A DNA stretch of 64,000 nucleotides from Candidatus Vesicomyosocius sp. SY067_SCS001 (lineage in GTDB: Bacteria; Pseudomonadota; Gammaproteobacteria; PS1; Pseudothioglobaceae): assembly GCF_014706615.1 (NCBI RefSeq), contig NZ_CP054877.1, forward strand, positions 682,001 to 746,000, written 5' to 3'. Position 1 is the stretch's first letter. Each line of letters starts with the position of its first letter. A program made the translations under genes and the position numbers. Positions 6,709 through 43,229 of this stretch are shown here, in pieces. The notes under the pieces were generated by a model, which was not told the origin of the DNA, did no database searches, and worked only from the letters and a program-made list of their open reading frames with translations.

Positions 6709-8304
6709 TTAAAACTTTTTGTCTAGATATTGAAAAATAATCATTAGTACGGAACCAAATAAAACCATTATAAGCGCTGGTATAGCGGCTCGTTCAAATA
6801 AACCTTCAGCACTTAATTCATACACTTGAATTGCCAATGTATCCCAACCAAATGGGCGTAATAAATAGGTAGCTGGCAATTCTTTCATTACATCAACTGC
6901 AACTAACAAACTACCTGCCAAAATACCTGGAGTCATCATTGGTAAGTATATTTGCCAAATAAGTCGCAAGCGTGACACGCCAAGTAAGCGTGCACTTTGA
7001 GTAAACATAGGCTTAATCTGCTCAGCATTGGCTTTAATTGAATTATAGCCAATTGCCATAAAACGAGATATATAAGCAAATAATAATAAAGTAATAGAAC
7101 CAAAAATAACCTGATTAATACTTTGTCCACCAAAATATATACTAACTGCTGACACTTGATTAATACCATATAATAATCCAACTGCCATAATTGAACCTGG
7201 TAATGCATAACCTAATGTCGCTATATTTATCACACCTTTAAGCCAAGAACTATTTTTTTTACAATGATTTGGTAATGCTAATATAGTAGCAATACCAACC
7301 GTTATTAAAGTAGCTGATACAGTTAGAATTAAAGTTGAAATAATCAAATCAGTATACTTAACACTCCATTCATTACCTGAGTACGTCCAACCCCAAATTA
7401 TCAATTGTAACATAGGCATGGCAAAAGCAAGCATAAATACGCTAAATATAAAAATACTAATTAACCAGCCCATAACACCAAAAGCACGATAAGGCTTTTT
7501 ATTAGCCACATCGTTTGAATAATATTTTGCTTGTCCCCGTGCTTTTTTCTCAAAATAAATCAAAAAAAATGCTACTAACACTAATAATGATGCCAATTGC
7601 GCTGCCAATTCAATAGAACGAAAATCACCCCAGGCAGAATAAATTGCCGTAGTAAACGTATCAAAATTAAACAAACTAACCACACCAAAATCAGCTAATA
7701 TTTCCATCATTGTTACTAGTAATCCAGCTGCTGCTGCTGGACGTGCTAAAGGCAAAGATATCTTAAAAAACGTACGCAAAGGACCAGTGCCTAACAAGCG
7801 ACCAGCTTCGATTATATTAACCTTTTGACGTTTAAATGAGGCTCGTGCCATCATGTATACATAAGGATAAAACACCAGTACAAAAGTTAGAATAATTGCC
7901 CAGGATCCGGTACGGATATCAAACCCTGATAAACCTAGCACTTCACGCATCCAAACTTGTACATAACCAGAATAGTCAAATACACCTAAATATACAAAAG
8001 CTAATACATATGCAGGAACAGCAAAAGGCAAAAATAACGCCCATTCTAACCACTGTCTACCAGGAAATTCAACCATTACCACTAAATATGCTAAAATTGT
8101 ACCTAAAAAAGTAACACCTACACCTACCCCAATAAGTAAAACTACAGTAGCACTGATTAAATTTGGCAATAAGATAGTAGAAAAATGCGCCCACAGTTCA
8201 CGTTCTGGAAATAACCACGACACAGCCACAACAAGAATTGGCATAGCTACCAATAGCGCTAAACCACTGATCCAAACTTTTGATTTAAGGCAATTTTTTT
8301 CCAA
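6709..8304 (-). CDS. fbpB: Ferric iron ABC transporter, fused double-domain permease (FbpB/SfuB type)
   Basis: A 531-residue inner-membrane protein built of two homologous permease halves, each with about six hydrophobic segments. Each half carries an EAA-like loop: one around residues 160-185 (IEAGRLLGTGPLRTFFKISL) and one around 430-460 (QSARLLGVSRLRLIWQIYLP). Such duplicated permeases belong to Fe(III) importers (FbpB, SfuB, FutB) and to the related thiamine permease ThiP. Neighbouring fbpA and fbpC and the Fur-like sites upstream favour iron. It is the last gene of the fbpC-fbpA-fbpB set, 89 bp after fbpA. It would carry ferric iron released by FbpA from the periplasm into the cytoplasm. 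Confidence 0.88.
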   Translation of the reverse strand: MEKNCLKSKVWISGLALLVAMPILVVAVSWLFPERELWAHFSTILLPNLISATVVLLIGVGVGVTFLGTILAYLVVMVEFPGRQWLEWALFLPFAVPAYVLAFVYLGVFDYSGYVQVWMREVLGLSGFDIRTGSWAIILTFVLVFYPYVYMMARASFKRQKVNIIEAGRLLGTGPLRTFFKISLPLARPAAAAGLLVTMMEILADFGVVSLFNFDTFTTAIYSAWGDFRSIELAAQLASLLVLVAFFLIYFEKKARGQAKYYSNDVANKKPYRAFGVMGWLISIFIFSVFMLAFAMPMLQLIIWGWTYSGNEWSVKYTDLIISTLILTVSATLITVGIATILALPNHCKKNSSWLKGVINIATLGYALPGSIMAVGLLYGINQVSAVSIYFGGQSINQVIFGSITLLLFAYISRFMAIGYNSIKANAEQIKPMFTQSARLLGVSRLRLIWQIYLPMMTPGILAGSLLVAVDVMKELPATYLLRPFGWDTLAIQVYELSAEGLFERAAIPALIMVLFGSVLMIIFQYLDKKF

Positions 8305-8393
8305 AATACTCTTTTTTAATCTTTAATAACTATTTTAAAAATAAAAAACTCAAGACTGTTTAAGTCTAGCTTTCTTGCTACTAAAATAGAAAC

Positions 8394-9404
8394 TTATCTA
8401 TAGCCTTTTGTTTGCATGAGCTTTACTGCATCAGCTTGTAATATACCTGTTTGTTCTAAATTCATTTTATCTTGCTTGAACGATCCCCAACTCGATACCA
8501 CTTCATCTGAAACAACGTTCTGATTAGCTGGATATTCTTTATTAAGCGATGCATAAATAGCTTGTGCTTTAGCATTTGACAACCATTCTAATAATTTAAT
8601 AGCGCCCTTAACATTAGTAGCATATTTTGTCACACCAGCACCTGATATATTTACATGTACACCTGTGGTGTCTTGATTTGCCCAAAATAACTTCAATGGT
8701 ACATTAGGATTTTTAGTAATTAAACGAGCAAAATAATAAGTATTTATCAAACCAATATCACATTGTCCTGAAATAATTGCATTCATGATATGAGAATCTT
8801 TAGCATTAGGTGTAGCTGCCAAATTATTCACCCAACCACTAATAATATCACTCGCTTTATTTATTCCATGATGATAAATCATGGATGCCACTAATGACTT
8901 AGTGTAAATTTTTTTACTAGTTCTTAAACACAATCTACCTGCCCATTTTATATCTGCCAAATTCTCATAAGTGGATAGATCGACTGGATTAACACGCTCA
9001 GTACTATAAACAATGGTTCTTGCACGCACTGATAGTCCTGTCCACAAGCCTTTAGAATCTCTTAAATGGCTTGGAATATTATTTTCTAACGTTTGTGTTT
9101 GTACCTCTTGAAATAAATCTTGCGTAGCAGCGTACCAAAGATTACCTGCATCTACAGTCATAAACATATCAGCGTTAGTGTTTTTACCTTCTAATTTCAA
9201 ACGCTCAATCAATGCACCACCTTTACCTGTTAAATACGTAACTTGAATGCCTGTATCTTTTGTAAAAGATTCAAATAAAGGTTTAATTAAATGTTCTTTT
9301 CTAGAACTATATACGGTTACTAAATCTTCACTTCTTGCTCGGGCTATACCAACACTAGTTACTATCAGTACCAATGCTGATAGTAACCATATTTTTATAT
9401 TCAT
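8394..9404 (-). CDS. fbpA: Periplasmic ferric iron-binding protein of ABC importer
   Basis: A 336-residue substrate-binding protein of the FbpA/FutA family. The chosen start is the ATG at 9404, not the upstream one at 9464, because it is preceded by a strong AAGGAG and directly opens a signal peptide (MNIKIWLLSALVLIVTSVG, cleavage near ARA-RS). The mature protein begins LVTVYSSRKEHLIKPLF, the family's N-terminal strand with the H/E iron-ligand region. The segment LINTYYFARL contains the paired tyrosines that hold Fe(III) in FbpA proteins. It should collect ferric iron in the periplasm and deliver it to FbpB/FbpC. It sits between the ATPase and the permease genes. Confidence 0.9.
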   Translation of the reverse strand: MNIKIWLLSALVLIVTSVGIARARSEDLVTVYSSRKEHLIKPLFESFTKDTGIQVTYLTGKGGALIERLKLEGKNTNADMFMTVDAGNLWYAATQDLFQEVQTQTLENNIPSHLRDSKGLWTGLSVRARTIVYSTERVNPVDLSTYENLADIKWAGRLCLRTSKKIYTKSLVASMIYHHGINKASDIISGWVNNLAATPNAKDSHIMNAIISGQCDIGLINTYYFARLITKNPNVPLKLFWANQDTTGVHVNISGAGVTKYATNVKGAIKLLEWLSNAKAQAIYASLNKEYPANQNVVSDEVVSSWGSFKQDKMNLEQTGILQADAVKLMQTKGYR

Positions 9405-9460
9405 CCTTATTTTTCTCCTTATAAAAAAACTGACTAAGGTTATATAATTGATGCATATTA

Positions 9461-10111
9461 TCAATTAATAGTCAATTTCTTATTTTTAATTACTCCTACT
9501 TTATCAGCAAAAATAGTCGCTTCATATTTGTCATGTGTTACTAGAATTGAAGTGATATTAGTTTTCTTTAAAATGCCTCTGACCTGCAATACTAATTGTT
9601 CTTGATGGTTCTTATCTAGACTAGAAAATGGTTCATCTAATAATAATAATTTTGGTGATGGGGCTAATGCACGAGCTAAGGCAACACGCTGTTGCTCTCC
9701 ACCTGAAAGCTGGTGTGGATATTTTCTCTCGATACCTTTCAAACCAATCATCGAAAGCAATTCTTCAACCTTAATTTTCTGTTCACTGTTTGATAAATTA
9801 TAAATACCAAAAGAAATATTTTTTTTTACATTCATATGCGGAAATAACGCATAATCTTGAAAAACCATTCCTATTTCTCTTAATTCTGGTACTACATTAT
9901 GTGTACCATTATTAGATAATTGTTTACCATTTAAAACTACCTGGCCACTTTGCGCCTCATCAAGTCCAGAAATAAACCTAAGTGCTGAACTTTTTCCACT
10001 ACCACTATCACCTAATAAGGCAAAAATATCGCCTGTAGCAAGACTTAAATCAAAATCATTTAAAATTTGAGTGGTTTTATAGGAAATTGATAAATGATTA
10101 ACTAATAACAT
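9461..10111 (-). CDS. fbpC: ATPase subunit of ferric iron ABC importer
   Basis: A 216-residue ABC ATPase with Walker A GDSGSGKSS (about residues 35-43), Q-loop region VFQDYALFPHMN, signature LSGGEQQRVALARALAP, and Walker B LLLLDEPFSSLD followed by the H-loop VTHDK. It lacks the C-terminal TOBE/regulatory domain of about 130 residues found in many FbpC proteins, so it is the short form. First gene of the fbpC-fbpA-fbpB unit; two Fur-box-like palindromes lie just upstream, suggesting iron repression. The fold is certain; iron specificity is inferred from its partners. Confidence 0.88.
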   Translation of the reverse strand: MLLVNHLSISYKTTQILNDFDLSLATGDIFALLGDSGSGKSSALRFISGLDEAQSGQVVLNGKQLSNNGTHNVVPELREIGMVFQDYALFPHMNVKKNISFGIYNLSNSEQKIKVEELLSMIGLKGIERKYPHQLSGGEQQRVALARALAPSPKLLLLDEPFSSLDKNHQEQLVLQVRGILKKTNITSILVTHDKYEATIFADKVGVIKNKKLTIN

Positions 10112-10122
10112 TTAATAATAAA

Positions 10123-10146
10123 AATGATAATGATTCCTATCATTAT
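10123..10146 (-). promoter_or_regulatory. Fur-box-like palindrome upstream of fbpC
   Basis: Left half AATGATAATGAT, right half TCCTATCATTAT, 12 bp before the fbpC ATG. It carries the GATAAT-type repeats of Fur operators and ends in inverted AATGATA/TATCATT. A Fur gene is present at 31894-32301. Confidence 0.6.
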
Positions 10147-10158
10147 ATAAGATATATC

Positions 10159-10172
10159 AATGATAATATCAT
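10159..10172 (-). promoter_or_regulatory. Second Fur-box-like palindrome upstream of fbpC
   Basis: AATGATAATATCAT, whose last 13 bases (ATGATAATATCAT) are almost perfectly palindromic, lies 12 bp upstream of the first site and next to the multicopper oxidase stop codon. Paired sites at one promoter are typical for Fur. Confidence 0.5.
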
Positions 10173-10177
10173 ATTAA

Positions 10178-11869
10178 CTAAATTTTACAAAAAGACTTTA
10201 ATGGAATTCTTTTGTTATTATTAATATCTGTCATGACAGTATCAAAATCCTCTGGTTCTACCACCAGAAATTGTCCCATCATTCCTGCGTCTTCATGTTC
10301 CAATATATGACAATGATACATATAAGGGTATTGAGTATCTGCGTAGTGATCAAATTTGGCAACTACTCTTACAGTTTCTTCTGGCATAAGTAGTACGGTA
10401 TCTTTCCAACCACTTTCATTTTCATTTGGCGGTGTTGGATCTGAACCATCTCCTTGTTCTCTATCAAGGATTTGAAATTGAATATCATGAATATGAAAAG
10501 GATGAGTAGTATGTGCACCGTTGGTAATTCGCCAAATTTCAATATCACCTTTTTTAACTACTTCATTAATCACATTCATGTCCATTTGAACACCATTAAT
10601 TAGATGTAACATATACTCACCTTCAAGTACAATACCATTAATAACTTTAAACATGGAAGTGAAAACTCGTTTGTTGATTTTAAAACCACTCATAACTGTT
10701 AATCCAAAATTCCTAGTTTTAATAGCATCTGACTCTTTTAATCGGACTATTTTAGTGAGTTTATTAGGAATTTTTCTAACAACATTAGTACTTGATTTAT
10801 TAACGTAAATACTCATGACATCAAAATTAACTTTATCTAACGTATCTACCGAATCCGACAAACGGCCTGTACCACCTACTTTAAACGGTCCACCAAACTG
10901 ATGACCGTTAAGTTTTTGTTTATCATAATATTCAGCACTAAAACTCTTAAACCGTAAAATTGTATTCTTGCTATTACTCAAATCAAGCAAAATTTCTACT
11001 CGTTCTGCAGGACCTAGCAATACCCTAGTAAGTAAAACTGGTTTTTCTAAAAAACCACCGTCACTAGCAATTTGATAAAACTGAATATCTCCTTCAAAAC
11101 CTAAATTGTAGATTCTTGCATTAGAGCCATTAAGTATTCTTAGTCTAATCACTTGGGCAGGTACATTTAAAATAGGTACATGCTTACCATTTACCAAAAT
11201 TGTATAGCCTTTCATTCCACCTGATTTATCAAAATCACCTTTATTTAAATAAAGCAATTGGGCTTTTTCATCAAACCTCCTATCTTGAATAACCACAGGT
11301 AAATCATCAACGCCATAAGTTTTAGGAATATCTAATAATCTAGAAGTTTCATCATCAATTAAGAAAAAACCTGCCATACCCTTATACACTTGTTCACCCG
11401 TATAACCCTCAAGATGAGGGTGATACCATTGAGTTGAAGCTAATTGATTAATACGCCAACTAGGTTTCCATGTTTTATTAGGTGGAATAATTTGATACGG
11501 ACCACCATCTTCTTTAGCCGGCAAATGCAATCCATGAAAATGTACGGTGGTATTAACTGATAAATAATTAGTTATTTCAAAACCCACATTATCCATATTA
11601 TCCACCCGAATAGTTGGACCTAATAGACTATCACCATAACCTAATACACATGTTAACTTACCTTTAAAAATTTCTGTTGTATTATAATTAATTGAAAATT
11701 TAAATATTCTTTTACCGTTAACAACTATAGGTTTAATAAGTGGCGGAACAATAAAAGATCTGTCTGCATAATCAGGATGAATAAATTTATCAGAATGCTT
11801 ACCACTACAGCCCACTACTAGTGCACTAGTAGACAAAATAGATGTTTTAATAAAATCTCTACGTTTCAT
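10178..11869 (-). CDS. Multicopper oxidase, CueO/bilirubin oxidase-like, exported
   Basis: A 563-residue three-cupredoxin oxidase. The N-terminus MKRRDFIKTS carries a twin-arginine motif, followed by LVVGC, which looks like a lipobox with C21, so it may be a folded, Tat-exported lipoprotein. All copper ligands are visible: HFH at 110-112, HPH at 150-152, HPFHIH near residue 455, and HCHILEHEDAGMM at 519-531, with type-1 copper ligands C520, H525 and probable axial M530. CueO-like enzymes oxidise Cu(I) or Fe(II). There is no methionine-rich CueO insert, which argues for ferroxidase rather than copper-detoxifying activity. The genomic neighbours (imelysins, Fbp importer) point the same way. Substrate is inferred, copper chemistry is well supported. 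Confidence 0.88.
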   Translation of the reverse strand: MKRRDFIKTSILSTSALVVGCSGKHSDKFIHPDYADRSFIVPPLIKPIVVNGKRIFKFSINYNTTEIFKGKLTCVLGYGDSLLGPTIRVDNMDNVGFEITNYLSVNTTVHFHGLHLPAKEDGGPYQIIPPNKTWKPSWRINQLASTQWYHPHLEGYTGEQVYKGMAGFFLIDDETSRLLDIPKTYGVDDLPVVIQDRRFDEKAQLLYLNKGDFDKSGGMKGYTILVNGKHVPILNVPAQVIRLRILNGSNARIYNLGFEGDIQFYQIASDGGFLEKPVLLTRVLLGPAERVEILLDLSNSKNTILRFKSFSAEYYDKQKLNGHQFGGPFKVGGTGRLSDSVDTLDKVNFDVMSIYVNKSSTNVVRKIPNKLTKIVRLKESDAIKTRNFGLTVMSGFKINKRVFTSMFKVINGIVLEGEYMLHLINGVQMDMNVINEVVKKGDIEIWRITNGAHTTHPFHIHDIQFQILDREQGDGSDPTPPNENESGWKDTVLLMPEETVRVVAKFDHYADTQYPYMYHCHILEHEDAGMMGQFLVVEPEDFDTVMTDINNNKRIPLKSFCKI

Positions 11870-11906
11870 AACTATTCTCTTTTAATCTTTGGAACCAAAA
11901 TAATCT

Positions 11907-11950
11907 CATAAAATATGACATAAAATATGACATAAAATATGACATAAAAT
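11907..11950. repeat. 12-nt tandem repeat, about 3.7 copies
   Basis: The unit CATAAAATATGA is repeated perfectly three times (11907-11942) and begins a fourth time (CATAAAAT to 11950). It fills the 83-bp space between the multicopper oxidase start and the stop of the next gene. Copy number is likely to vary by replication slippage and would change the spacing upstream of the oxidase. Confidence 0.9.
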
Positions 11951-11952
11951 TC

Positions 11953-12861
11953 TTACTTTTTTATTTGTTTATAGATAACAATAAAAGGAAATAATAACAA
12001 ATCTTTCAAACTTTTAAAGTTTCTCATCTGTGTTCTTTCTAAGCCAAATTTAATTTTAGTTATATTGTTTGAAAGAATTAATGTACCAAATAAATAGTCC
12101 CAAATTGACAAAAAACCACCAAAATTAGTATTCATATGATTCTTAGAATGATGAATTTGATGTTGTAGAGGAGAGATTAAAAATAGCTCAATCACATTTC
12201 CAAAACCTAGCTTGATATGAGAATGTCTAAGATTAGAACCTAATAATGAAAATATAAAAACAAACAAATTAACACCTAAGATATCATAGATACTCACCAA
12301 ACTGCCAAATAAAAATACAAAAACACCTGTCACAAAACCGATACTTAAAGAATAGCGAAAACCGAACAACAAAAATTCAATAGGATGCACTCGATAAAAC
12401 GTAAGTGGATTTAAAACTTTAGCACTATGGTGTACTTTATGAAACACCCATAGCCATGGCACAAAGTGTAATAAACGATGTAACCAATAACGGGTAAAAT
12501 CACTTAAAATAAACAAAATAAATGTAAATAGCACCATTACTTGTGTATAAGAGAAAGTTTCTATTCTCACAAAACCGTATTGATTTAACAAGACAATATT
12601 AACAAACAATGCAACTTCTTTAGCACTTATGATCACTGGTAATATAATCATAACTCTAAAGAGTATAGAAAAAATAAAATAACTATAATCCAACAAACTA
12701 GAAGGATGTAGCCAAAGTTTTTTTGATAACACAATACGTTTTTGTTCTGGATGAAACTTTAAAAAAACAAACGCAATCATCAATGAACTTAGTAAAAATA
12801 ACCAATAAATTCGCCTATGTGGATCCATTAAGTATTCAAACGGATTAATCTCCATCAGCAT
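11953..12861 (-). CDS. Fatty acid hydroxylase / sterol desaturase superfamily membrane protein
   Basis: A 302-residue integral membrane protein with several hydrophobic spans and the three histidine clusters of the di-iron hydroxylase superfamily: HRLLH (128-132), HKVHH (141-145) and HQIHH (234-238), plus H159 in the sequence YRVHP. Family members use a di-iron centre and oxygen to hydroxylate or desaturate lipids. Here the gene is embedded between a multicopper oxidase and imelysin genes, its start overlapping the upstream imelysin gene by 17 bp, so it is translated within the iron cluster. Whether it modifies a lipid or contributes otherwise to iron handling cannot be told from sequence. 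Its true substrate is unknown. Confidence 0.82.
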   Translation of the reverse strand: MLMEINPFEYLMDPHRRIYWLFLLSSLMIAFVFLKFHPEQKRIVLSKKLWLHPSSLLDYSYFIFSILFRVMIILPVIISAKEVALFVNIVLLNQYGFVRIETFSYTQVMVLFTFILFILSDFTRYWLHRLLHFVPWLWVFHKVHHSAKVLNPLTFYRVHPIEFLLFGFRYSLSIGFVTGVFVFLFGSLVSIYDILGVNLFVFIFSLLGSNLRHSHIKLGFGNVIELFLISPLQHQIHHSKNHMNTNFGGFLSIWDYLFGTLILSNNITKIKFGLERTQMRNFKSLKDLLLFPFIVIYKQIKK

Positions 12862-13810
12862 CTAACACCTTAGAGACAAATCCCAATTTATCCATTAAAG
12901 AGATATAATAAGCTTTCATAAGCCTATTGGTTGATTGATATAAAAGTTTACCTTTATCGTTAATAAAATCAAACTCAGACATATTATTAGCATTAGCAAT
13001 TGAATCATTTAATGCACTAATAGCCTGGTCGATCTCTTTTCTTGCTTTAAATTGACGCGATATATCACCAAAATCTTGATAATCTGGTGAATTAATAACC
13101 TGAACTTGTGTTTCAAGAATAGCTTTAATAGCATTGACACTATTACCACTAGTTGCATACTCTGCTCTATAATTGTTGGGTTTATTCTTAAATTTTTTAC
13201 TCAAACCAGCTACATCACCAACGCGCCACTCTTTAAGTTTATAGGTACCAGCAATTAAAGTATTTAGCAAAATTGCACTAGCATATTGCTCACTTTCAAG
13301 GAATTTTGACTGATACATTTTATAACCATCTAAAATTTCTAACAAATAGTTTTTGATTGACTTAGCAATTATTAACGCCATATTTTTAACTCTCGGATGA
13401 AACAAATCTTTTGTAAAAAGAATATATTCCAAAGCATTAATAGTTTTGTGTGAATACTTATACATAGCATTAAATAGCTCATCATTACTATTAATAATTA
13501 AATCTAATTGAGGTTTAATATCCTCGTTATTCCCATGAAATATATCAATGTATCTTGGTATATCTAAATAATCTTCATTTAAATCACCTAATAAATAAGT
13601 AGTTTCGACTTTTTTCCAACTTGAAACTAAGTTACCAAATTGCATTTTAATTCTTGTAGAATTAGATTGATTAATATCATCAATTAATAGCTCAACATTT
13701 TTAATAGCTAACATAATATTGACAATAATAACTTGGTTAAAAAATTTTTCACCGACTGCGTTTACAACAATCGATACAAACAAAATAATAACAACTAAGT
13801 ATCTCATCAA
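12845..13810 (-). CDS. Imelysin-like periplasmic protein with degenerate motif
   Basis: A 321-residue protein beginning with a hydrophobic export segment (MMRYLVVIILFVSIVVNAVG) and then helical sequence typical of the imelysin (peptidase M75-like, EfeO-related) fold. The family motif GxHxxE is present only as TINALE at residues 123-128: the glutamate stays but the histidine is asparagine, so any metal site must differ. It lies 6 bp downstream of the di-haem protein gene and overlaps the following hydroxylase gene. Pairs of imelysins flanking a di-haem oxidoreductase are a recurrent arrangement in iron-regulated loci. Most likely an accessory iron-binding or docking protein rather than a peptidase. 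Confidence 0.75.
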   Translation of the reverse strand: MMRYLVVIILFVSIVVNAVGEKFFNQVIIVNIMLAIKNVELLIDDINQSNSTRIKMQFGNLVSSWKKVETTYLLGDLNEDYLDIPRYIDIFHGNNEDIKPQLDLIINSNDELFNAMYKYSHKTINALEYILFTKDLFHPRVKNMALIIAKSIKNYLLEILDGYKMYQSKFLESEQYASAILLNTLIAGTYKLKEWRVGDVAGLSKKFKNKPNNYRAEYATSGNSVNAIKAILETQVQVINSPDYQDFGDISRQFKARKEIDQAISALNDSIANANNMSEFDFINDKGKLLYQSTNRLMKAYYISLMDKLGFVSKVLDADGD

Positions 13811-13816
13811 CTTACC

Positions 13817-15184
13817 CTATATCTCATTCAAAAATTGCAATATTTTACCTCTACTACTAACAGGTAAATTCATAAACAAAGTTTTAGACTTACCAGACTC
13901 ACCACCATGCCAAATAATTGCCTGTTCTAGGTTGCGTGCACGACCATCATGCAAAAAATTCTTATTATCTTTAAGTATTAAAGAGACTCTGCCCAATCTC
14001 CACAATGGAGGTGTGCGCCATTCATTACCTAAAGCATCAAATTCTGAACGACCATCTGCTAAATCCTTTCCCATGTCATGTAATAGAAAATCACTATATG
14101 GATATATAGTAATATTAGGCAATAAATAACTTGGAACATGACATTGTGAACATCCTATTTTAGAGAATAGTCTTTGTCCTTGATATTGGCTAATAATAGA
14201 TTTTGGTAGTTTCAAATGTGTCAAATAATAACTAATAGCATTTAATCTTTGCGCTGTTAGCTCATGTTTTTCTCCATCTTTTGATGAATTAATACATTCA
14301 ACTTGCATTAATGTGCACGACTGATGTTCGTAAATAGGATTAGTTAAACCCATATCATTAACAGCAGCATTGGCTGATTGATACTTTACTGTTGGTGCAG
14401 AAGCTTTCCAAGCATAACGACCAATCTCAATTTTATTAGTCTGTTCTGACCAAACCCTATTAGCTTTACCAGAAATACCATCATGATTAGCATCATTAAT
14501 ATCTTCATTAGCTAGAATTTGTTCATCAGTAATTTGTTCTAATAACCCCAAACCCACAAGTGCTGGTGCAATTCTAGCAGAAATAATTGTATTAGGAAGC
14601 AAATCACCATAACCCAATTTCTCTAATTTAACTATTGGTTGTTGCAAACTGATGATAGTGCCATCAGTATAATGAATATTTTTAGTTGAATAATGCACCA
14701 AAGACTTAGCTTCAAAAGGCACACCAGGAACTCCATTAATACTAATTTGAACACCATAATTAGGTTCAGGAATAAAACCAAGTTTAGCTATTATTCCTTG
14801 ATGCTCATCAGTACCATTTGAAGGTATGGATAAGTGTATTACGTGCGACTTATCAACAATATTATTTACTTCAAATACTTTTCCACGACCATTTTTTGCA
14901 TGGCAATTAATACAAGTATTAGCACTAAATAATGGACCTAATCCATCACGTGCTGTTGTTGAACTAGGAGCCTCTACCCAAGGAATACGAAAAAAACTTT
15001 TTCCTAAAATAAACTTATCCAGTTTATCATTACTTAAATTAGGTTGAACTTGCGTAAAAGATTGATTTAACTCGTAAGTTGATAAATTACTAAAATCATT
15101 AGCAAAAACCATTTCCATTAGACTAATAACAAGCAATAGTATGATTAAAACTGCTAAATATTTATAGTTTAATTTCCCCAACAT
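13817..15184 (-). CDS. Di-haem oxidoreductase (DHOR/DUF1111, cytochrome c peroxidase-like)
   Basis: A 455-residue exported protein with an N-terminal hydrophobic segment (residues 8-28) and two c-type haem motifs, CINCH at 91-95 and CSQCH at 345-349. It also has the family sequence near its C-terminus FLHDGRARNLEQAIIWHGGE. This family is annotated as putative thiol oxidoreductase or di-haem peroxidase and is repeatedly found beside imelysin genes. Its start overlaps the end of the upstream imelysin/IrpA gene by 23 bp, so translation is coupled. Haem attachment needs the Ccm system, of which ccmA and ccmB are in this window. A periplasmic redox role in iron uptake is an inference from context. 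Confidence 0.85.
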   Translation of the reverse strand: MLGKLNYKYLAVLIILLLVISLMEMVFANDFSNLSTYELNQSFTQVQPNLSNDKLDKFILGKSFFRIPWVEAPSSTTARDGLGPLFSANTCINCHAKNGRGKVFEVNNIVDKSHVIHLSIPSNGTDEHQGIIAKLGFIPEPNYGVQISINGVPGVPFEAKSLVHYSTKNIHYTDGTIISLQQPIVKLEKLGYGDLLPNTIISARIAPALVGLGLLEQITDEQILANEDINDANHDGISGKANRVWSEQTNKIEIGRYAWKASAPTVKYQSANAAVNDMGLTNPIYEHQSCTLMQVECINSSKDGEKHELTAQRLNAISYYLTHLKLPKSIISQYQGQRLFSKIGCSQCHVPSYLLPNITIYPYSDFLLHDMGKDLADGRSEFDALGNEWRTPPLWRLGRVSLILKDNKNFLHDGRARNLEQAIIWHGGESGKSKTLFMNLPVSSRGKILQFLNEI

Positions 15185-16469
15185 CCATTATATTTCCAAC
15201 TGTTAAATCAATACCATTTGATTTTGCTACATAAATCATTTGATCACCAATGGCTCTTAACTCATTTTTAAGTTTTTTTATTTGCCTAGCTTGAGAATCA
15301 TTCGGACGAATTTGATAATCAAAATGACGGCTTACTTGTGCCAATGTATTCATTTGATTAATTTTAGTATTTACTGATGCAATTAAACCCATTAACTTAG
15401 TCTTATCTTTCATAGCATCAATAAGTGCTACACCATAGTCAAAACTATTATAAGTACCGAACAACAAATTCTTAAAACCTTGAAAATTTTGCGTTATATC
15501 ACGATGTGTATTATCAGAAAAACAACTATGCTCATCTTCTTCAGATGGTGTTAATACTGCTATTGCAATACGTTCATTAGCAAGTTCAGATTTAATAAAA
15601 ATACCTAACCCAGAAAAAATTTGCTTAAGTGCCACCTTTGCATTAATATTCTTAGTCACATCAGAATTTTTACCCAATAATGCTGCTTTATAATTAGTAC
15701 TATCGCCATCTGCCCAAGCCGAAGTTATTGACTCTAAATCAGCAATAATTAGACTTACTGCTGCATTTAAATATTGTTTACGACGATCAGCATTTGCATT
15801 AATCGTATAATCAGTAAGTGCTCTCTGACCTGCTAACAAAGCACCATGAGTTACATTATCTTTTATAAAATTAGCATAATCCTGATCTTGACCCCATAAT
15901 AAAAACTCAATAACGTGATAACCTGTTGCAACATTAGCATAACCACCATTTCCATTAAGCGCTGCTAACACGTCAGAAGTAATTATACTTACATCAATTA
16001 ATAAAGGATTTTCCCCGCCTGGATTAAACATACCTGGGGTGTCAATAATATTACCTGATGTTTTTCTACCCTTGGAATTGGTTATATAGTCAATCATATT
16101 TTCATCTAATGGCCAAGCATTTAATCGCCCTTCTGGTGCCCCATAAGATGTATGCCAACCTTCCTCTACATCAATAGGCCCATTAGACAATCTAAACGCT
16201 TCAGTTTGACCATAAGATTCACGAGCATTCAGCCATGCAGCTTTTGCATTTCCCATTGTTTCTATTGTAGGATTGTTTGTAAAATCTTTCAGTTTTGTCC
16301 CTAATTTTTTGGCATCATTCAGAGCATCCATATAGTTTACAGTTGCAATATTTGCATAAGTGATTAACAACGGATTAATCTCATCTCTACTCAAGAATAC
16401 ACTTGCAGCAGAAATTATCATTACCACTGTTAAACCAAATGAAATCATCAATTTTTTTTGAATTGTCAT
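15162..16469 (-). CDS. irpA: Imelysin/IrpA family iron-regulated periplasmic protein
   Basis: A 435-residue protein with an N-terminal signal sequence (MTIQKKLMISFGLTVVMII) and the canonical imelysin motif GYHVIE at residues 183-188 (G183, H185, E188), followed by FLLWGQD, a hallmark of the IrpA/ICMP branch. IrpA was described in cyanobacteria as an iron-regulated protein, and the related EfeO imelysin binds iron in E. coli. This is the first gene of the minus-strand run that continues through the di-haem protein, a second imelysin, the hydroxylase and the multicopper oxidase. It has a well-placed AAGGAG 10-12 bases before the ATG. No clear Fur box was seen immediately upstream. Confidence 0.87.
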   Translation of the reverse strand: MTIQKKLMISFGLTVVMIISAASVFLSRDEINPLLITYANIATVNYMDALNDAKKLGTKLKDFTNNPTIETMGNAKAAWLNARESYGQTEAFRLSNGPIDVEEGWHTSYGAPEGRLNAWPLDENMIDYITNSKGRKTSGNIIDTPGMFNPGGENPLLIDVSIITSDVLAALNGNGGYANVATGYHVIEFLLWGQDQDYANFIKDNVTHGALLAGQRALTDYTINANADRRKQYLNAAVSLIIADLESITSAWADGDSTNYKAALLGKNSDVTKNINAKVALKQIFSGLGIFIKSELANERIAIAVLTPSEEDEHSCFSDNTHRDITQNFQGFKNLLFGTYNSFDYGVALIDAMKDKTKLMGLIASVNTKINQMNTLAQVSRHFDYQIRPNDSQARQIKKLKNELRAIGDQMIYVAKSNGIDLTVGNIMDVGEIKL

Positions 16470-17238
16470 GTATATTTTCTCCTTACACTTATAAAAATTC
16501 TATAGTTGTTATTATTAACACACAAAAGCGTGTTAATAAACTATAAATTGATTTTTATCTGTCCATTTTATTATTTTCAATAAGATAATTACACCTTATA
16601 ACTGATCAAAAACTATAAGCTAAGACCTAAAAATCATTCAACCTAAACCATTGCCTAAATTAGACCTTAAACGATAAGGATTAGAACTAGCATAACCCGT
16701 TATATCATTTTTAAAATAATTCACGCCAATAACAATAATATATCAACCACTGTATCTGTAATAATATTCATATACTTAATACTATTTATCCTATATATTT
16801 TAATTATAAATATCTACAAAACTACTTCTGCAGACTTGATGCCTGTGTATATTACTATTAATACACCTTCTTTTATTTTATGAAAAGAGTTAATTTCTTC
16901 AAGTTAATAAATGATATCAGTTATTATTTGCATTTATAATAAAATATAAAAATTATGTAATATATCATTTTCTTAGCTATTAAGAAAAAATAAAACCTCT
17001 TAAATACCAAGCTATGCTATTCATTAAATTAATTGCCATAGATCTAGCATTTGGATTTGATTTTATGATTTATATTATTAACAGTACATTTATTACAAAA
17101 TCAAATTTATCTTAAAATTATATAAGCTCTACTTTTGATTTATTTATATGCTATACAGAAAAAAGTATGAATAAATTATTATCACCTCTGGATATATCTT
17201 AACTAATTGCATATTATAAAAATATAACATAAAATAAA
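16470..17238. other. Gene-free stretch upstream of irpA, possible short relic
   Basis: About 770 bp without an intact gene. On the minus strand around 16645-16730 a stretch reads GVNYFKNDITGYASSNPYRL and ends SNLGNGLG, which looks like former coding sequence (perhaps the end of an outer-membrane protein), but it is too short to name. The rest holds promoters for the divergent irpA and the cation transporter at most. Confidence 0.35.
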
Positions 17239-31099: not shown

Positions 31100-31903
31100 T
31101 TAAATTAATTTTTTATATGCAAGTTGTGATAATAAGAATAACCCACCTAGAGTAATTACAATCGCTGGTCCTGTTGCTACATCATAAAACATTGAAACAC
31201 TAATACCAATAGTAACTGCAACCATAGAAATAATAACTGACTGAAATACCATGCCGCTAGGTGTATTAGAAAATGCTCTAGCAACGGCTGGTGGAATAAT
31301 CAATAAAGAGGTAATTAAAAGCACACCTACAATTTGTACTGAAACAGACACAGCTAACGCAATCATTAACATAAATAACAACTGATAAAAATCTCTATTA
31401 AGACCTTGTGCAACTGCTAATTCTTCATTTAAAGTTAGTAATAATAAACGCTGCCAAAAAATAATGAGTAGTAATCCAAGTACTGTCAAAATTACATACA
31501 CCCAAATAATATCAGAGTTAGTGATAGATAAAATATCACCAAATAAGAGTGAAAAATAGTCCGTATTAGTTTCGCCAATAAAACCTAAAACGACAATACC
31601 TAACGATAAAAAAATATGTGAAAAAATACCTAAAATAGTATCGTTAGATAAAAAATTTTTTCGTTGCAAGATAACAATAAATATTGCAAATATTATACCT
31701 ACCATTACCAAGCCAAAATGCATTCCTAAGCCACTAACAAAACCTAAAGATGTACCCAAAAGTGCTGAATGTGAAATAGATTCTGAGAAATAACTCATAC
31801 GTTTCCAAATAACAAAACAACCCAATGAACCTGAAATAATTGAAATGCCAATGGCTGCTAAAATAGCCCTAAAAATAAAATCTTCCAAATGGATTAGTGA
31901 CAA
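31100..31903 (-). CDS. znuB: ABC-type zinc/manganese transporter permease (ZnuB family)
   Basis: A 267-residue membrane permease of the ABC-3 family with about eight hydrophobic segments. The start MSLIHLEDFIFRAILAAIGI and the segment GCFVIWKRMSYFSESISHSA (ZnuB-type) identify it. It would form the channel of a ZnuABC Zn(II) importer, but neither the binding protein nor the ATPase lies in this window. Its start overlaps the end of fur by 10 bp on the same strand, so it is translated from the fur message. A comparable zur-znuC-znuB order exists in Pseudomonas and relatives, which raises the question of what the regulator senses. Confidence 0.88.
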   Translation of the reverse strand: MSLIHLEDFIFRAILAAIGISIISGSLGCFVIWKRMSYFSESISHSALLGTSLGFVSGLGMHFGLVMVGIIFAIFIVILQRKNFLSNDTILGIFSHIFLSLGIVVLGFIGETNTDYFSLLFGDILSITNSDIIWVYVILTVLGLLLIIFWQRLLLLTLNEELAVAQGLNRDFYQLLFMLMIALAVSVSVQIVGVLLITSLLIIPPAVARAFSNTPSGMVFQSVIISMVAVTIGISVSMFYDVATGPAIVITLGGLFLLSQLAYKKLI

Positions 31904-32301
31904 CCCTTACAAAAACCGTATAAATACAAGCAATGATCGGTCAGTTGGTAACCATATTTATTAGCAATATCATGCTGATGTTGCTCAATTACCTCATCAG
32001 AGAATTCATCAATTTTACCACACTTAACGCATACTAGATGATCGTGATGTTCTACATTTGATAGCTCAAACACACTTTGACCATTATCAAAGTTAAGTTT
32101 ATTTACCATGCCTGCCTCTTCAAACTGAGTAAGTACTCTATAAATCGTAGCTACACCCACTTCTGCACCTTGCATCATCAAAGTACGATAAATATCCTCG
32201 GCGCTCATATGATGATTATCACTAGTTTCTAAAATTTCCAAAATTTTTAATCTTGGTAGTGTAACTTTAAGCCCCGCACTTTTTAAATCCTGAGCATCCA
32301 T
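31894..32301 (-). CDS. fur: Fur family metal-dependent repressor
   Basis: A 135-residue regulator. The beginning SAGLKVTLPRLKILEILE is close to E. coli Fur and the winged helix contains GVATIYRVLTQFEEAGMV. Metal sites include VEHHDHLVCVKCGKIDEF, with the first CxxC pair, and a second cysteine pair in FCKGCH at the C-terminus. Upstream and divergent is bamE, the usual partner of fur in gammaproteobacteria, so I call it Fur rather than Zur. The overlap with znuB keeps Zur as an alternative. The Fur-box-like palindromes at 10123-10172 are plausible targets. Confidence 0.87.
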   Translation of the reverse strand: MDAQDLKSAGLKVTLPRLKILEILETSDNHHMSAEDIYRTLMMQGAEVGVATIYRVLTQFEEAGMVNKLNFDNGQSVFELSNVEHHDHLVCVKCGKIDEFSDEVIEQHQHDIANKYGYQLTDHCLYLYGFCKGCH

Positions 32302-41637: not shown

Positions 41638-42318
41638 TCAATAATTATTAATGATAAATTCAATATCATCTGCAATTTTAATCGGGTCATGCGGAGTAGG
41701 AAAGCCAGCAAATATTTGCCCATCTGGATTGAGTAGATAAATCCAAGCGGTATGATTAATTAAGTAGCCAGATTCTAGAATATCTTTTGATAAAAGCTTA
41801 TCATTTTTAAATATTATTAACTTACCATTTTTTTCATAAACCACCCGTTCATAATATACACCAAATGGTCTAATAAGCTGATTAATTTGTACTTGATCAC
41901 CAGACACGCCTAAAAAGTCCTTATCAAAATGAGTCACATAAGTTTTTAACACACTAGGTGTATCTCTAGCTGGATCAAAGGTAATAGCAACAAGGTTTGG
42001 TATAATACTTACACCTCTTTTAATCAAAGTAGACTTGAGTATTGACATATCCATTAATACAGTAGGACATACATCTGGACAGTGTGTATAAATAAAGGAT
42101 AGTAACGTCCATTTTCCTTTAAAGTTATTATTATCAAATTTATTATTGTTATGGTCAACTAACGAAAAAGAAGACAATTTTTTATCAGGATTATGAAGGA
42201 TATAAGAAACTTTAAGTTGTTTTTCTAAATCTTGATAACCTTTACTAGAGTTTACAAAATATAATGTAGAAATGACCAACACAACTACCACAATACCACT
42301 AAATAATTTATTATTCAT
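41638..42318 (-). CDS. SCO1/SenC-family copper chaperone
   Basis: A 226-residue protein with an N-terminal anchor (residues 8-22) and a thioredoxin-like domain. Copper ligands are CPDVCPT (FIYTHCPDVCPTVLMD) and the distal histidine in YLINHTAWIYLL. Such proteins deliver copper to the CuA centre of cytochrome c oxidase. Another copper-handling gene, PCuAC, lies 410 bp upstream on the same strand, a common pairing. The protein is of usual length and its frame is intact. Confidence 0.9.
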   Translation of the reverse strand: MNNKLFSGIVVVVLVISTLYFVNSSKGYQDLEKQLKVSYILHNPDKKLSSFSLVDHNNNKFDNNNFKGKWTLLSFIYTHCPDVCPTVLMDMSILKSTLIKRGVSIIPNLVAITFDPARDTPSVLKTYVTHFDKDFLGVSGDQVQINQLIRPFGVYYERVVYEKNGKLIIFKNDKLLSKDILESGYLINHTAWIYLLNPDGQIFAGFPTPHDPIKIADDIEFIINNY

Positions 42319-42728
42319 AAGACTAATACATAATGATTACTCATTATATTTCCTTAATTATATAAGATTTTACTTTATTGGAGAACTACCAAGAAATGGT
42401 TTTAACTTTCAACTATAGGATTAAATAATAACTTTGAAATAAATTCTATATACTTACTATTTCCACGCTATTAATCAAATTAGCATATTCAAATATAACT
42501 ATTTTTGAATATGCAACAACTACAATAATTATCTTTGATAAAACTCTTAAGTAAATATTAAACAGATTTACTCCTAACAAGAAATAAATCATCTTTTAGA
42601 GACTTTTGCATAAGTAAGCGATAATGGTGTAATTATTACTTTAATAAAAAAGTTAAAACTTTTAGTATATACCTCTGTACTATTTTATAGCTTAATATTA
42701 ATTAAGCAAAATCTTTTTAATATATTTC
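42319..42728. other. Gap between copper chaperone genes with inverted repeat
   Basis: 410 bp without a gene. It contains a perfect 11-bp inverted repeat, GCATATTCAAA (42483-42493) and TTTGAATATGC (42504-42514), separated by 10 bases. There is no T run after it in either direction, so it is not a typical terminator. Confidence 0.6.
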
Positions 42729-43229
42729 TTACTCGTGCATTATACTATGGTGATTATCTATCGTTTTCTTTCCTGTTCTAACTTCAGCATGTACAATTTT
42801 TGTCAAACCATTGTCAAAGATCAACTCAATCATCACTATATCACCTTTATGTAACACTAACTTAGGACTAATCAACATAATGTGCCAACTCCCTGGTTTT
42901 AAATGTAGCTTACCTTTAGCTGGAATTATCATAAATTTCTGTTTAACCATTTTCATCATATCATCTTGTGCCACAGTTCTGTGCAATTCAATACTCTTAT
43001 AGTCACTAGAATTTACAGAAAGTAATTTAATATCATTATTGGTATTATTATTAATTTGCATAAAAAGACCCAATACTGATGCATTAGTTGGTGCTAAACG
43101 TATCCATGGATCATTTATCATAATTTCAGATGTAATCTGGTTCATTTGATGATGTTCCATTGTAATGGATACATACAAGATTATTAAAATAATAAATGCT
43201 AATATAAGTTTCTTTACTTTATTAAACAT
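42729..43229 (-). CDS. PCuAC-family periplasmic copper chaperone
   Basis: A 166-residue protein with an N-terminal hydrophobic signal (residues 8-22) and the Cu(I)-binding pattern of PCuAC: ELHRTVAQDDMMKM and, further on, LKPGSWHIMLI (H, then M...M, then HxM). PCuAC passes copper to CuA/CuB of cytochrome oxidase or to Sco proteins. It is on the same strand as the Sco gene. The C-terminal tail is rich in histidines (NHHSIMHE), possibly extra metal binding. Confidence 0.87.
   Translation of the reverse strand: MFNKVKKLILAFIILIILYVSITMEHHQMNQITSEIMINDPWIRLAPTNASVLGLFMQINNNTNNDIKLLSVNSSDYKSIELHRTVAQDDMMKMVKQKFMIIPAKGKLHLKPGSWHIMLISPKLVLHKGDIVMIELIFDNGLTKIVHAEVRTGKKTIDNHHSIMHE

What the first reader, a model, noticed from the sequence alone, without database searches (positions are those of the whole stretch)
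6709..16469. A contiguous iron island joining imelysins, a di-haem protein, a multicopper oxidase and an Fbp importer
Eight genes on one strand, nearly all overlapping or with short gaps: irpA (canonical imelysin), DHOR di-haem protein, degenerate imelysin, di-iron hydroxylase-like membrane protein, Tat-type multicopper oxidase, then fbpC-fbpA-fbpB with two Fur-like boxes. Seen: motifs GYHVIE, CINCH/CSQCH, three His boxes, all copper ligands, ABC parts. Known: imelysin plus peroxidase plus permease is the EfeUOB theme, and Fet3-Ftr1 uses a multicopper ferroxidase. Inferred: an outer-face system that binds Fe(II), oxidises it via copper and haem proteins and hands Fe(III) to FbpA. Its retention amid heavy decay suggests it is essential to the host-symbiont iron economy.
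Basis: partly seen in the sequence, partly recalled or inferred. Interest (0 to 1): 0.8.

Follow-up and report, generated by a model that had tools for sequence, protein, structure and literature searches.

The report
Clam-symbiont iron island with swapped oxidase
A shrinking bacterium living inside deep-sea clams keeps an iron-uptake gene cluster in which a multicopper oxidase sits exactly where its relatives carry a haem peroxidase, a natural swap that hints at what the missing chemical step in this poorly understood kind of iron uptake is.

Summary
The eight genes are real, intact and under purifying selection, but not one ancient unit. The Fut/Fbp importer, with its own Fur-like box, is older: intact in 12 of 12 clam-symbiont genomes, its binding protein found in 56 of 83 family genomes. 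Upstream lies a module. Outside this genus it reads imelysin, di-haem DHOR, second imelysin, membrane hydroxylase, MauG-type di-haem peroxidase; MauG follows in 12 of 12 readable loci, all five genes being present in 11. In the clam-symbiont genus the peroxidase is gone and a Tat-type multicopper oxidase, with no ortholog found elsewhere, takes its place. Loss is ordered: second imelysin and hydroxylase fail together (6 of 12 genomes, three to four events); imelysin, DHOR and oxidase fail together (2 of 12); the importer never. Elsewhere the module adjoins cupredoxin-FTR1 (one genome) or another ABC importer (one genome), and one genome fuses a related hydroxylase to a FutA-type protein. The imelysin-DHOR-imelysin trio is known; the extended module, the peroxidase-to-oxidase swap and the stepwise loss were not found in the papers searched. 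Iron oxidation by the oxidase is inferred. That the whole island is essential is not supported.

The parts
15162..16469 (-). imelysin 1, ICMP type, GYHVIE motif; N-terminal signal read by eye
   Evidence: PF09375 194 bits; best solved structure by sequence 7xrx ICMP
13817..15184 (-). DHOR di-haem oxidoreductase, putative peroxidase, two CxxCH
   Evidence: PF06537 241 bits; CINCH and CSQCH
12845..13810 (-). imelysin 2, IPPA type, motif degenerate (TINALE), C-terminus LDADGD
   Evidence: PF09375 44 bits; model (mean pLDDT 61) closest to 3pf0, Z 20.5, rmsd 3.2, 271 aligned, then 7xrx at Z 19.1; alignment
11953..12861 (-). membrane hydroxylase, OlsE-like, three His boxes
   Evidence: PF04116 88 bits; OlsE 45.5 bits, far below cut-off 475
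10178..11869 (-). Tat-type multicopper oxidase standing in the MauG position
   Evidence: Cu-oxidase domains; CueO 373 bits, below cut-off 525; RR motif and copper ligands in 10 of 10 orthologs; TatC in genome
9461..10111 (-). futC/fbpC ABC ATPase
   Evidence: PF00005
8394..9464 (-). futA/fbpA ferric-binding protein
   Evidence: best solved structure 7li0, 337 bits; Tyr187, Tyr243, Tyr244 aligned with tyrosines of 7li0 and 2pt1
6709..8304 (-). futB/fbpB two-domain permease
   Evidence: PF00528, two stretches
10122..10142 (-). Fur-like box overlapping a TATAAT, promoter of futCAB
   Evidence: box at the same place in 12 of 12 genus genomes and a box in 11 of 11 other family loci scored; the window's own copy is matched by 18 of 200 shuffles; sequence
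16909..16929 (-). Fur-like palindrome, left from the promoter of the decayed porin gene
   Evidence: 16 of 20 positions, one of 4 such 21-mers in the window; 17-18 of 20 upstream of the porin in 5 of 5 readable g8/g9 loci
16641..16739 (-). remnant of the porin gene that heads the module in relatives
   Evidence: 33-residue match, 58% identity, E 7e-8 in a search of this stretch alone, to the whole porin of G043
31894..32301 (-). fur, the likely regulator
   Evidence: NF006999 198 bits, above cut-off 146

Best explanation
It is a Fur-controlled periplasmic iron module placed upstream of an older Fut/Fbp ferric importer. Iron that gets through the outer membrane is bound by the ICMP-type imelysin; the di-haem DHOR and the multicopper oxidase set its oxidation state, and Fe(III) is passed to FutA and imported by FutBC. 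In relatives the last enzyme is a MauG-type di-haem peroxidase; in the clam-symbiont genus the multicopper oxidase has taken its place and most likely does the same job, an oxidation, with O2 instead of H2O2. Imelysin 2 and the membrane hydroxylase form a separate, dispensable pair. Shown: gene content, the positional swap, order of loss, purifying selection, boxes shared with relatives. Inferred: iron as substrate of the oxidase, direction of electron flow, hand-over to FutA, Fur binding.
For: MauG follows the hydroxylase in 12 of 12 readable module loci outside the genus, in Gammaproteobacteria and one Arcobacteraceae. The MCO is there in all 10 genus genomes that keep the module; MauG is absent from all 12 genus loci, and PF03150 from 11 of 12 genus genomes, the twelfth holding broken pieces elsewhere, 26-42% identical to the module's MauG. 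No MCO ortholog outside the genus in 83 family genomes or in 274 class genomes (none at E<=1e-120). Joint fates: imel1, DHOR and MCO share one state in 12 of 12 genomes, imel2 and hydroxylase another in 12 of 12. Importer links elsewhere: cupredoxin-FTR1 in G621, Fut-type importer with imelysins and DHORs in G291, hydroxylase-FutA fusion in G738, FeoB and futCAB in G069. dN/dS of the eight genes 0.08-0.31. FeoB_C found in 0 of 12 genus genomes, no TonB plug in this genome. The island MCO is poorer in Met than the family's CueO-like paralogs and has an acidic loop.
Against: No expression or biochemical data. Adjacent genes can be lost together without being linked in function, though in three genomes separate frame breaks, not one deletion, hit imel2 and hydroxylase. 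CueO, which acts on Cu(I), is the best-scoring named family. Xu 2011 found no specific ferric or haem binding by two imelysins. futCAB has its own promoter and outlives the module. In G763 the neighbouring ABC importer is of the SBP_bac_6 class but its binding proteins gave no match to the window's FutA, so its substrate is open. A related hydroxylase is fused to a creatininase in G513, and most related hydroxylases fetched have no module gene beside them. Importers other than FeoB and TonB receptors (FTR1, NRAMP, ZIP) were not searched in the genome.
Confidence: 0.45

Rival explanations
1. The MCO is a copper-detoxifying cuprous oxidase that happened to land in the island; as the only MCO left in this genome it protects the periplasm from copper.
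For: Best NCBIfam match is CueO at 373 bits; only one MCO match in G000 at E<=1e-20; the Asp-x-Met stretch aligned with CueO-type proteins is kept (its role is recalled).
Against: Below the CueO cut-off; poorer in Met than family paralogs, though two of these (L047, L048) have no denser Met stretch than the island MCO; the CueO-like paralog of the family is a different protein, about 46% identical, seen in G043 and as pieces or with stops in G036, G038, G039 and G044; the island MCO is kept and lost with imel1 and DHOR.
Confidence: 0.2
2. The module defends against peroxide and ferrous-iron stress when iron is short; it does not feed the importer, whose genes merely sit next door with their own promoter.
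For: Separate conserved box and -10 of futCAB; the Leptospira imelysin-peroxidase-imelysin genes are induced by H2O2, and its two imelysins also under iron limitation (PMC7567364, passages); the importer outlives the module.
Against: Links of the module or its hydroxylase to FTR1, to Fut-type importers and a gene fusion in other genomes; an O2-using oxidase would not replace a peroxide scavenger.
Confidence: 0.2
3. MauG or MCO and the hydroxylase modify a partner: MauG-type enzymes oxidise protein side chains and OlsE-type enzymes hydroxylate membrane lipids (both recalled), so the module matures an imelysin or remodels the membrane under Fur control.
For: MauG of two module loci scores nearest the MbnH family, below its cut-off; hydroxylase nearest OlsE, far below its cut-off.
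Against: A multicopper oxidase is not known (recalled) to do MauG-type side-chain chemistry; the hydroxylase is lost while the MCO stays.
Confidence: 0.15

Closest known systems
[quoted passage not shown] 2011, PMC3143127; passages and one section seen)
   Same: ICMP-type imelysin, DUF1111/DHOR di-haem protein, IPPA-type imelysin without the His
   Different: Here a hydroxylase and an MCO follow and an importer is attached; no DUF1513 gene (that PA4373 is DUF1513 is recalled)
EfeUOB / EfeUOBM ferrous importer
   Same: Imelysin domain plus haem protein near an iron permease; G621 carries the module behind cupredoxin and FTR1
   Different: No FTR1, cupredoxin domain or DyP peroxidase among the eight genes; the importer is of ABC type
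Fbp/Fut ferric ABC importer
   Same: Binding protein, two-domain permease and ATPase, Fur-like box
   Different: The upstream redox module is not part of the classical system
Fet3-Ftr1 of yeast
   Same: Multicopper oxidase beside an importer that takes Fe(III)
   Different: No Ftr1; ferroxidase activity unproven; imelysins and DHOR added
CueO
   Same: Tat-type MCO with the copper-ligand blocks
   Different: Under the family cut-off, few Met, extra acidic loop and C-terminal extension

Membership tests
Imelysin-DHOR-imelysin operon (PA4370 type) | canonical imelysin with GxHxxE | tested here: met
   GYHVIE at residue 183, PF09375
Imelysin-DHOR-imelysin operon (PA4370 type) | DHOR with two haem motifs between the imelysins | tested here: met
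Imelysin-DHOR-imelysin operon (PA4370 type) | second imelysin of IPPA type, His lost, Glu kept | tested here: met
   TINALE; 3pf0 is the only Foldseek match at E<=0.001 and tops the Z list; model mean pLDDT only 61
Imelysin-DHOR-imelysin operon (PA4370 type) | Fur regulation | tested here: inconclusive
   Fur-like palindrome shared with relatives, but one of 4 such 21-mers in the 64 kb window and no binding data
Imelysin-DHOR-imelysin operon (PA4370 type) | DUF1513 gene (recalled) | tested here: not met
   none among the eight genes
EfeUOB | FTR1/EfeU permease in the locus | tested here: not met
   no PF03239 among the eight genes; the rest of the genome was not searched for it
EfeUOB | EfeO with cupredoxin plus M75 domain, and EfeB of DyP type | tested here: not met
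   no such domains among the eight genes; that EfeB is DyP is from an abstract listed, while Xu 2011 calls it DUF1111
Fbp/Fut ferric ABC importer | FutA-type binding protein, two-domain permease, ATPase | tested here: met
Fbp/Fut ferric ABC importer | ferric-iron ligands (tyrosines) | tested here: inconclusive
   three tyrosines aligned; the H-Y pair of 2pt1 is K-E here and A-D in 7li0; which residues bind iron is recalled
CueO | NCBIfam equivalog cut-off 525 bits | tested here: not met
   373 bits
CueO | Met-rich segment | tested here: inconclusive
   15-17 Met in 563-564 aa in 10 orthologs against 22-29 in 473-508 aa in nine family paralogs; but the densest 60 residues hold 5-7 in three island copies and 6-10 in the paralogs, so the ranges overlap
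Fet3-type ferroxidase | acidic iron-site residues and Fe(II) activity | not testable with these tools
   MCO model unusable, mean pLDDT 28
OlsE ornithine-lipid hydroxylase | NCBIfam cut-off 475 bits | tested here: not met
   45.5 bits

The most novel reading that the evidence does not exclude
Bacteria have a modular periplasmic iron-oxidation unit whose last enzyme is exchangeable: an H2O2-driven MauG-type peroxidase in most carriers, an O2-driven multicopper ferroxidase in clam symbionts, delivering Fe(III) to whichever importer is at hand (FTR1, Fut or other ABC type). The swap identifies the reaction that the poorly understood imelysin systems need, and the clam symbionts hold a bacterial counterpart of Fet3 coupled to an ABC importer.
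Probability: 0.25. Interest if true: 0.75.

Novelty: new variant of a known kind. Interest (0 to 1): 0.55.

Why it matters
What imelysins and their di-haem partners do is still open. A natural case in which one redox enzyme of the module is exchanged for another, together with a nested order of gene loss in twelve related symbionts, splits the island into three layers and makes the missing reaction testable with one soluble enzyme. It also bears on how an endosymbiont without FeoB may still obtain iron.

Tried and rejected
Rejected: 'one conserved eight-gene operon'. In 83 family genomes DHOR matched 19 at E<=0.001 and reached its cut-off in 17: 10 of 12 in the genus (g1), 5 of 12 in g8 as a shorter form, 2 of 12 in g9, 0 of 29 in g5; the two weak ones are in g6 and g7.

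Rejected: a Fur box right in front of imelysin 1. None is conserved within 150 bp in the ten genus genomes that have the gene; the box lies further up, where the porin used to start.

Controls against my reading of the boxes: 24 positions, both orientations counted, reach 14 of 19 in the 64 kb window and 4 reach 16 of 20, the module box being one. Of 200 shuffles the futC box was matched by 18 in the window, 19-21 in the three nearest relatives, 30 in G043 and 0-8 in the other seven genus genomes, against 0-4 in the 11 other family loci. Two family loci read were left out: L069 (same place as L113) and L076 (16 upstream bases only). The module palindrome in the window's form was seen in 6 of the 10 genus genomes with imelysin 1; in G037, G038, G039 and G044 the two best matches are other boxes. 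The porin start of G069 lies at a contig end and could not be read.

Led nowhere: structure of the MCO (mean pLDDT 28; six near-identical sequences); PDB sequence searches for imelysin 2 and DHOR; plasmid search for the hydroxylase (no match) and the MCO (54 records, all under 60% identity, best row 42%); anti-phage library. The origin of the MCO stays open. Hydroxylase searches: 369 class genomes, 191 matches at E<=1e-10, 30 loci fetched, 27 of them outside the family, one with the module (G230) and one with an imelysin and a DHOR beside it (G092); 32 genomes of G230's order, 3 matches, all with the module or most of it; 398 phylum genomes, 26 matches at E<=1e-40, 20 loci fetched, three outside the family with the module (G230, G763, G621). 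Rows dropped: matches under 25% of the query, under 35% identity, cation-efflux, cbbM, argJ and porin rows; the Met counts leave out one partial paralog, L053.

In print, as far as searched (open-licence PubMed Central only): imelysin with multicopper oxidase, 3 papers, one seen in passages and two as abstract starts, none on symbionts by title; imelysin with sterol desaturase, none; imelysin with MauG, 2 Leptospira papers, one seen in passages; DUF1111 or imelysin, 31 papers, 25 listed; symbiont, multicopper oxidase and iron terms, 278 papers, 15 listed; a last mixed search listed nothing relevant in its top 10 of 2,322. PMC5520373 has a multicopper-oxidase group shared by R. magnifica and V. 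okutanii in a table (passage). In PMC2642828 the word 'iron' occurs once, in a reference, 'multicopper' and 'imelysin' not at all.

Full report
WHAT IS THERE. The eight ORFs at 6709-16469 are complete and identified. In transcription order: imelysin 1, DHOR, imelysin 2, hydroxylase, multicopper oxidase (MCO), futC, futA, futB, with gaps of -23 to 89 bp. The window lies in a genome of 1,032,764 bases in one contig. The nearest named relatives are Candidatus Vesicomyosocius symbionts, 92-93% identical in DHOR; that these live in vesicomyid clams is from papers listed. I call the genus g1; 12 genomes of it are held.

SELECTION. Pairwise dN/dS for the island genes among intact copies is 0.08-0.31 over the eight genome pairs computed (seven for imelysin 2 and the hydroxylase); the MCO lies at 0.08-0.15. 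So the genes are under purifying selection, including the degenerate imelysin.

THE IMPORTER IS OLDER THAN THE ISLAND. The binding protein is found in 56 of 83 family genomes and in 12 of 12 of g1. Its best solved relatives are iron-binding proteins (7li0, 6g7n, 2pt1). In other family genomes futC follows FeoB (G061, G076), or stands back to back with the cation-efflux gene (G067, G079), or follows an M24 peptidase gene (G007), without the module. A TATAAT overlapped by a Fur-like box precedes futC at the same place in 12 of 12 g1 genomes, and a box was found in 11 of 11 other family loci scored; the family loci beat at least 196 of 200 shuffles, the window's own copy 182 of 200. futCAB therefore probably has its own promoter behind the MCO.

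THE MODULE. DHOR reaches its cut-off in 17 of 83 family genomes: 10 of 12 g1, 5 of 12 g8 (a shorter protein, with two CxxCH in the two read), 2 of 12 g9, 0 of 29 g5. In g8 and g9 the order is porin, imelysin 1, DHOR, imelysin 2, hydroxylase, MauG-type di-haem peroxidase; then futCAB in G056 and G053, FeoB and futCAB in G069, FeoB up to the contig end in G071, and contig ends in G059 and G054. Outside the family I found the module in one Arcobacteraceae genome, G230, G452, G458, G763 and G621. MauG follows the hydroxylase in 12 of 12 loci where the fetched DNA allows a look: G056, G053, G059, G054, G069, G071, the Arcobacteraceae, G230, G452, G458, G763, G621; imelysin 2 is missing in G452, and the hydroxylase reading frame is interrupted in G458. 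A thirteenth locus, G057, was fetched too short to tell. An Algibacter locus has imelysin, DHOR and imelysin only.

THE SWAP. No MauG match lies in any of the 12 g1 loci, and PF03150 is absent from 11 of 12 whole g1 genomes; the twelfth, G040, has two pieces about 325 kb away, 26-42% identical to the module's MauG. The MCO stands in its place in the 10 genomes that keep the module. MCO orthologs (86-100%) occur only in g1; in 274 class genomes nothing outside g1 reaches E 1e-120. Other MCOs of the family, some also in g1, are 39-48% identical over their longer matches, up to 55% on short end pieces. Compared with nine of them the island MCO has fewer Met, an acidic loop and a C-terminal extension. 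It has the Tat motif and copper ligands in 10 of 10 orthologs, and TatC is encoded. The lipobox Cys, read by eye, is present in 9 of 10 (missing in G035; preceded by Asp in G037). MauG shows a lipobox in the seven Thioglobaceae and Arcobacteraceae copies, none evident in G230, G452, G458 and G621, and its start is unclear in G763. DHOR needs haem attachment: ccmA and ccmB are in the window.

ORDER OF LOSS. States in 12 g1 genomes: futC, futA, futB intact in 12; imelysin 1, DHOR and MCO intact in the same 10 and lost in the same 2 (G036, G041, with MCO fragments left); imelysin 2 and hydroxylase intact in the same 6 (G000, G034, G035, G042, G039, G043), broken or gone in the same 6. In G038, G040 and G037 both are broken by separate frame breaks between intact neighbours; in G044 one deletion removed most of both. 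On a tree of futCAB and argJ these are three to four events: G040 stands with intact G039 (support 97), G038 with G036 and G041 (100), G037 apart (92), G044 weakly placed. Intact means one ORF covering over 93% of the window's protein. The porin is whole only in G043, broken in G038, G039 and G040, traceable in G035, G037 and, as 33 residues, in the window. The Fur-like palindrome that stands before the porin in g8 and g9 (17-18 of 20 in 5 of 5 readable loci) is left in the window at 16909-16929 (16 of 20) and in five other g1 genomes.

LINKS TO IRON ELSEWHERE. G621 has cupredoxin, FTR1, then the module. G763 has two SBP_bac_6 proteins, permease and ATPase, then the module; these binding proteins gave no match to the window's FutA, so the substrate is open. 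G291 has imelysin, DHOR, imelysin, FutA, FutB, FutC, DHOR, DUF1513, imelysin, hydroxylase. In G738 one 674-residue ORF holds the hydroxylase and a FutA-type protein, followed by a permease. In G799 and G692 a DUF4856 protein, an imelysin and a TonB receptor precede the hydroxylase. Against: G513 fuses a similar hydroxylase to a creatininase, and many related hydroxylases have no module gene within the fetched flanks.

HOW IT PROBABLY WORKS. FeoB_C is found in 0 of 12 g1 genomes and 15 of 83 in the family; the TonB plug is absent from this genome and present in 4 of 12. Iron then probably crosses the outer membrane passively and is captured in the periplasm. Work on EfeUOB and Fet3-Ftr1 (PMC9174327, passages) makes an oxidation coupled to uptake plausible. 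A peroxidase and an MCO have little in common except that both oxidise donors; that one stands where the other does while the rest of the module stays makes Fe(II) oxidation the simplest common job. FutA takes the product. This is inference. Imelysin 2 and the hydroxylase are a second layer that several of these symbionts do without.

COMPARISON. The trio imelysin-DHOR-imelysin is the known Fur-regulated PA4370 operon type (PMC3143127, passages, one section), and imelysin 2 is closest to its IPPA structure (Z 20.5; ICMP 19.1). Leptospira has a comparable run responding to H2O2, with its imelysins also responding to iron limitation (PMC7567364, passages). New, as far as I searched, are the five-gene extension with its MauG partner in two phyla, the MCO in its place, the loss order and the importer pairings.

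Noticed in passing
window 12845-12862, and L035, L110, L034, L114: Imelysin 2 ends in LDADGD in all 10 imelysin-2 sequences aligned, from Thioglobaceae to Arcobacteraceae and G230: an invariant acidic C-terminus of unknown role.
   Followed up: partly
L156:5345-7369: One ORF encodes a membrane hydroxylase joined to a FutA-type iron-binding protein, with a permease gene overlapping it.
   Followed up: partly
L161:5666-7504: A related hydroxylase fused to a creatininase domain.
   Followed up: no
L110:5424-6482 and other g8 loci: The g8 DHOR is about 100 residues shorter than in g1 (352-354 against 455 aa) yet keeps two CxxCH motifs in the two read.
   Followed up: no
L129:2114, L128:16710, L032:7031, L112:13612, L107, L108: A second Fur-like palindrome (17-19 of 20) further upstream in the Ruthia-like part of the genus, including the two genomes that lost the module; the gene it served is unclear.
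   Followed up: partly
window 41638-43229: SCO1 and PCuAC copper chaperones lie about 25 kb away and could bear on copper supply.
   Followed up: no
L157, L158: A DUF4856 protein, an imelysin, a TonB receptor and a hydroxylase form another recurrent run.
   Followed up: partly
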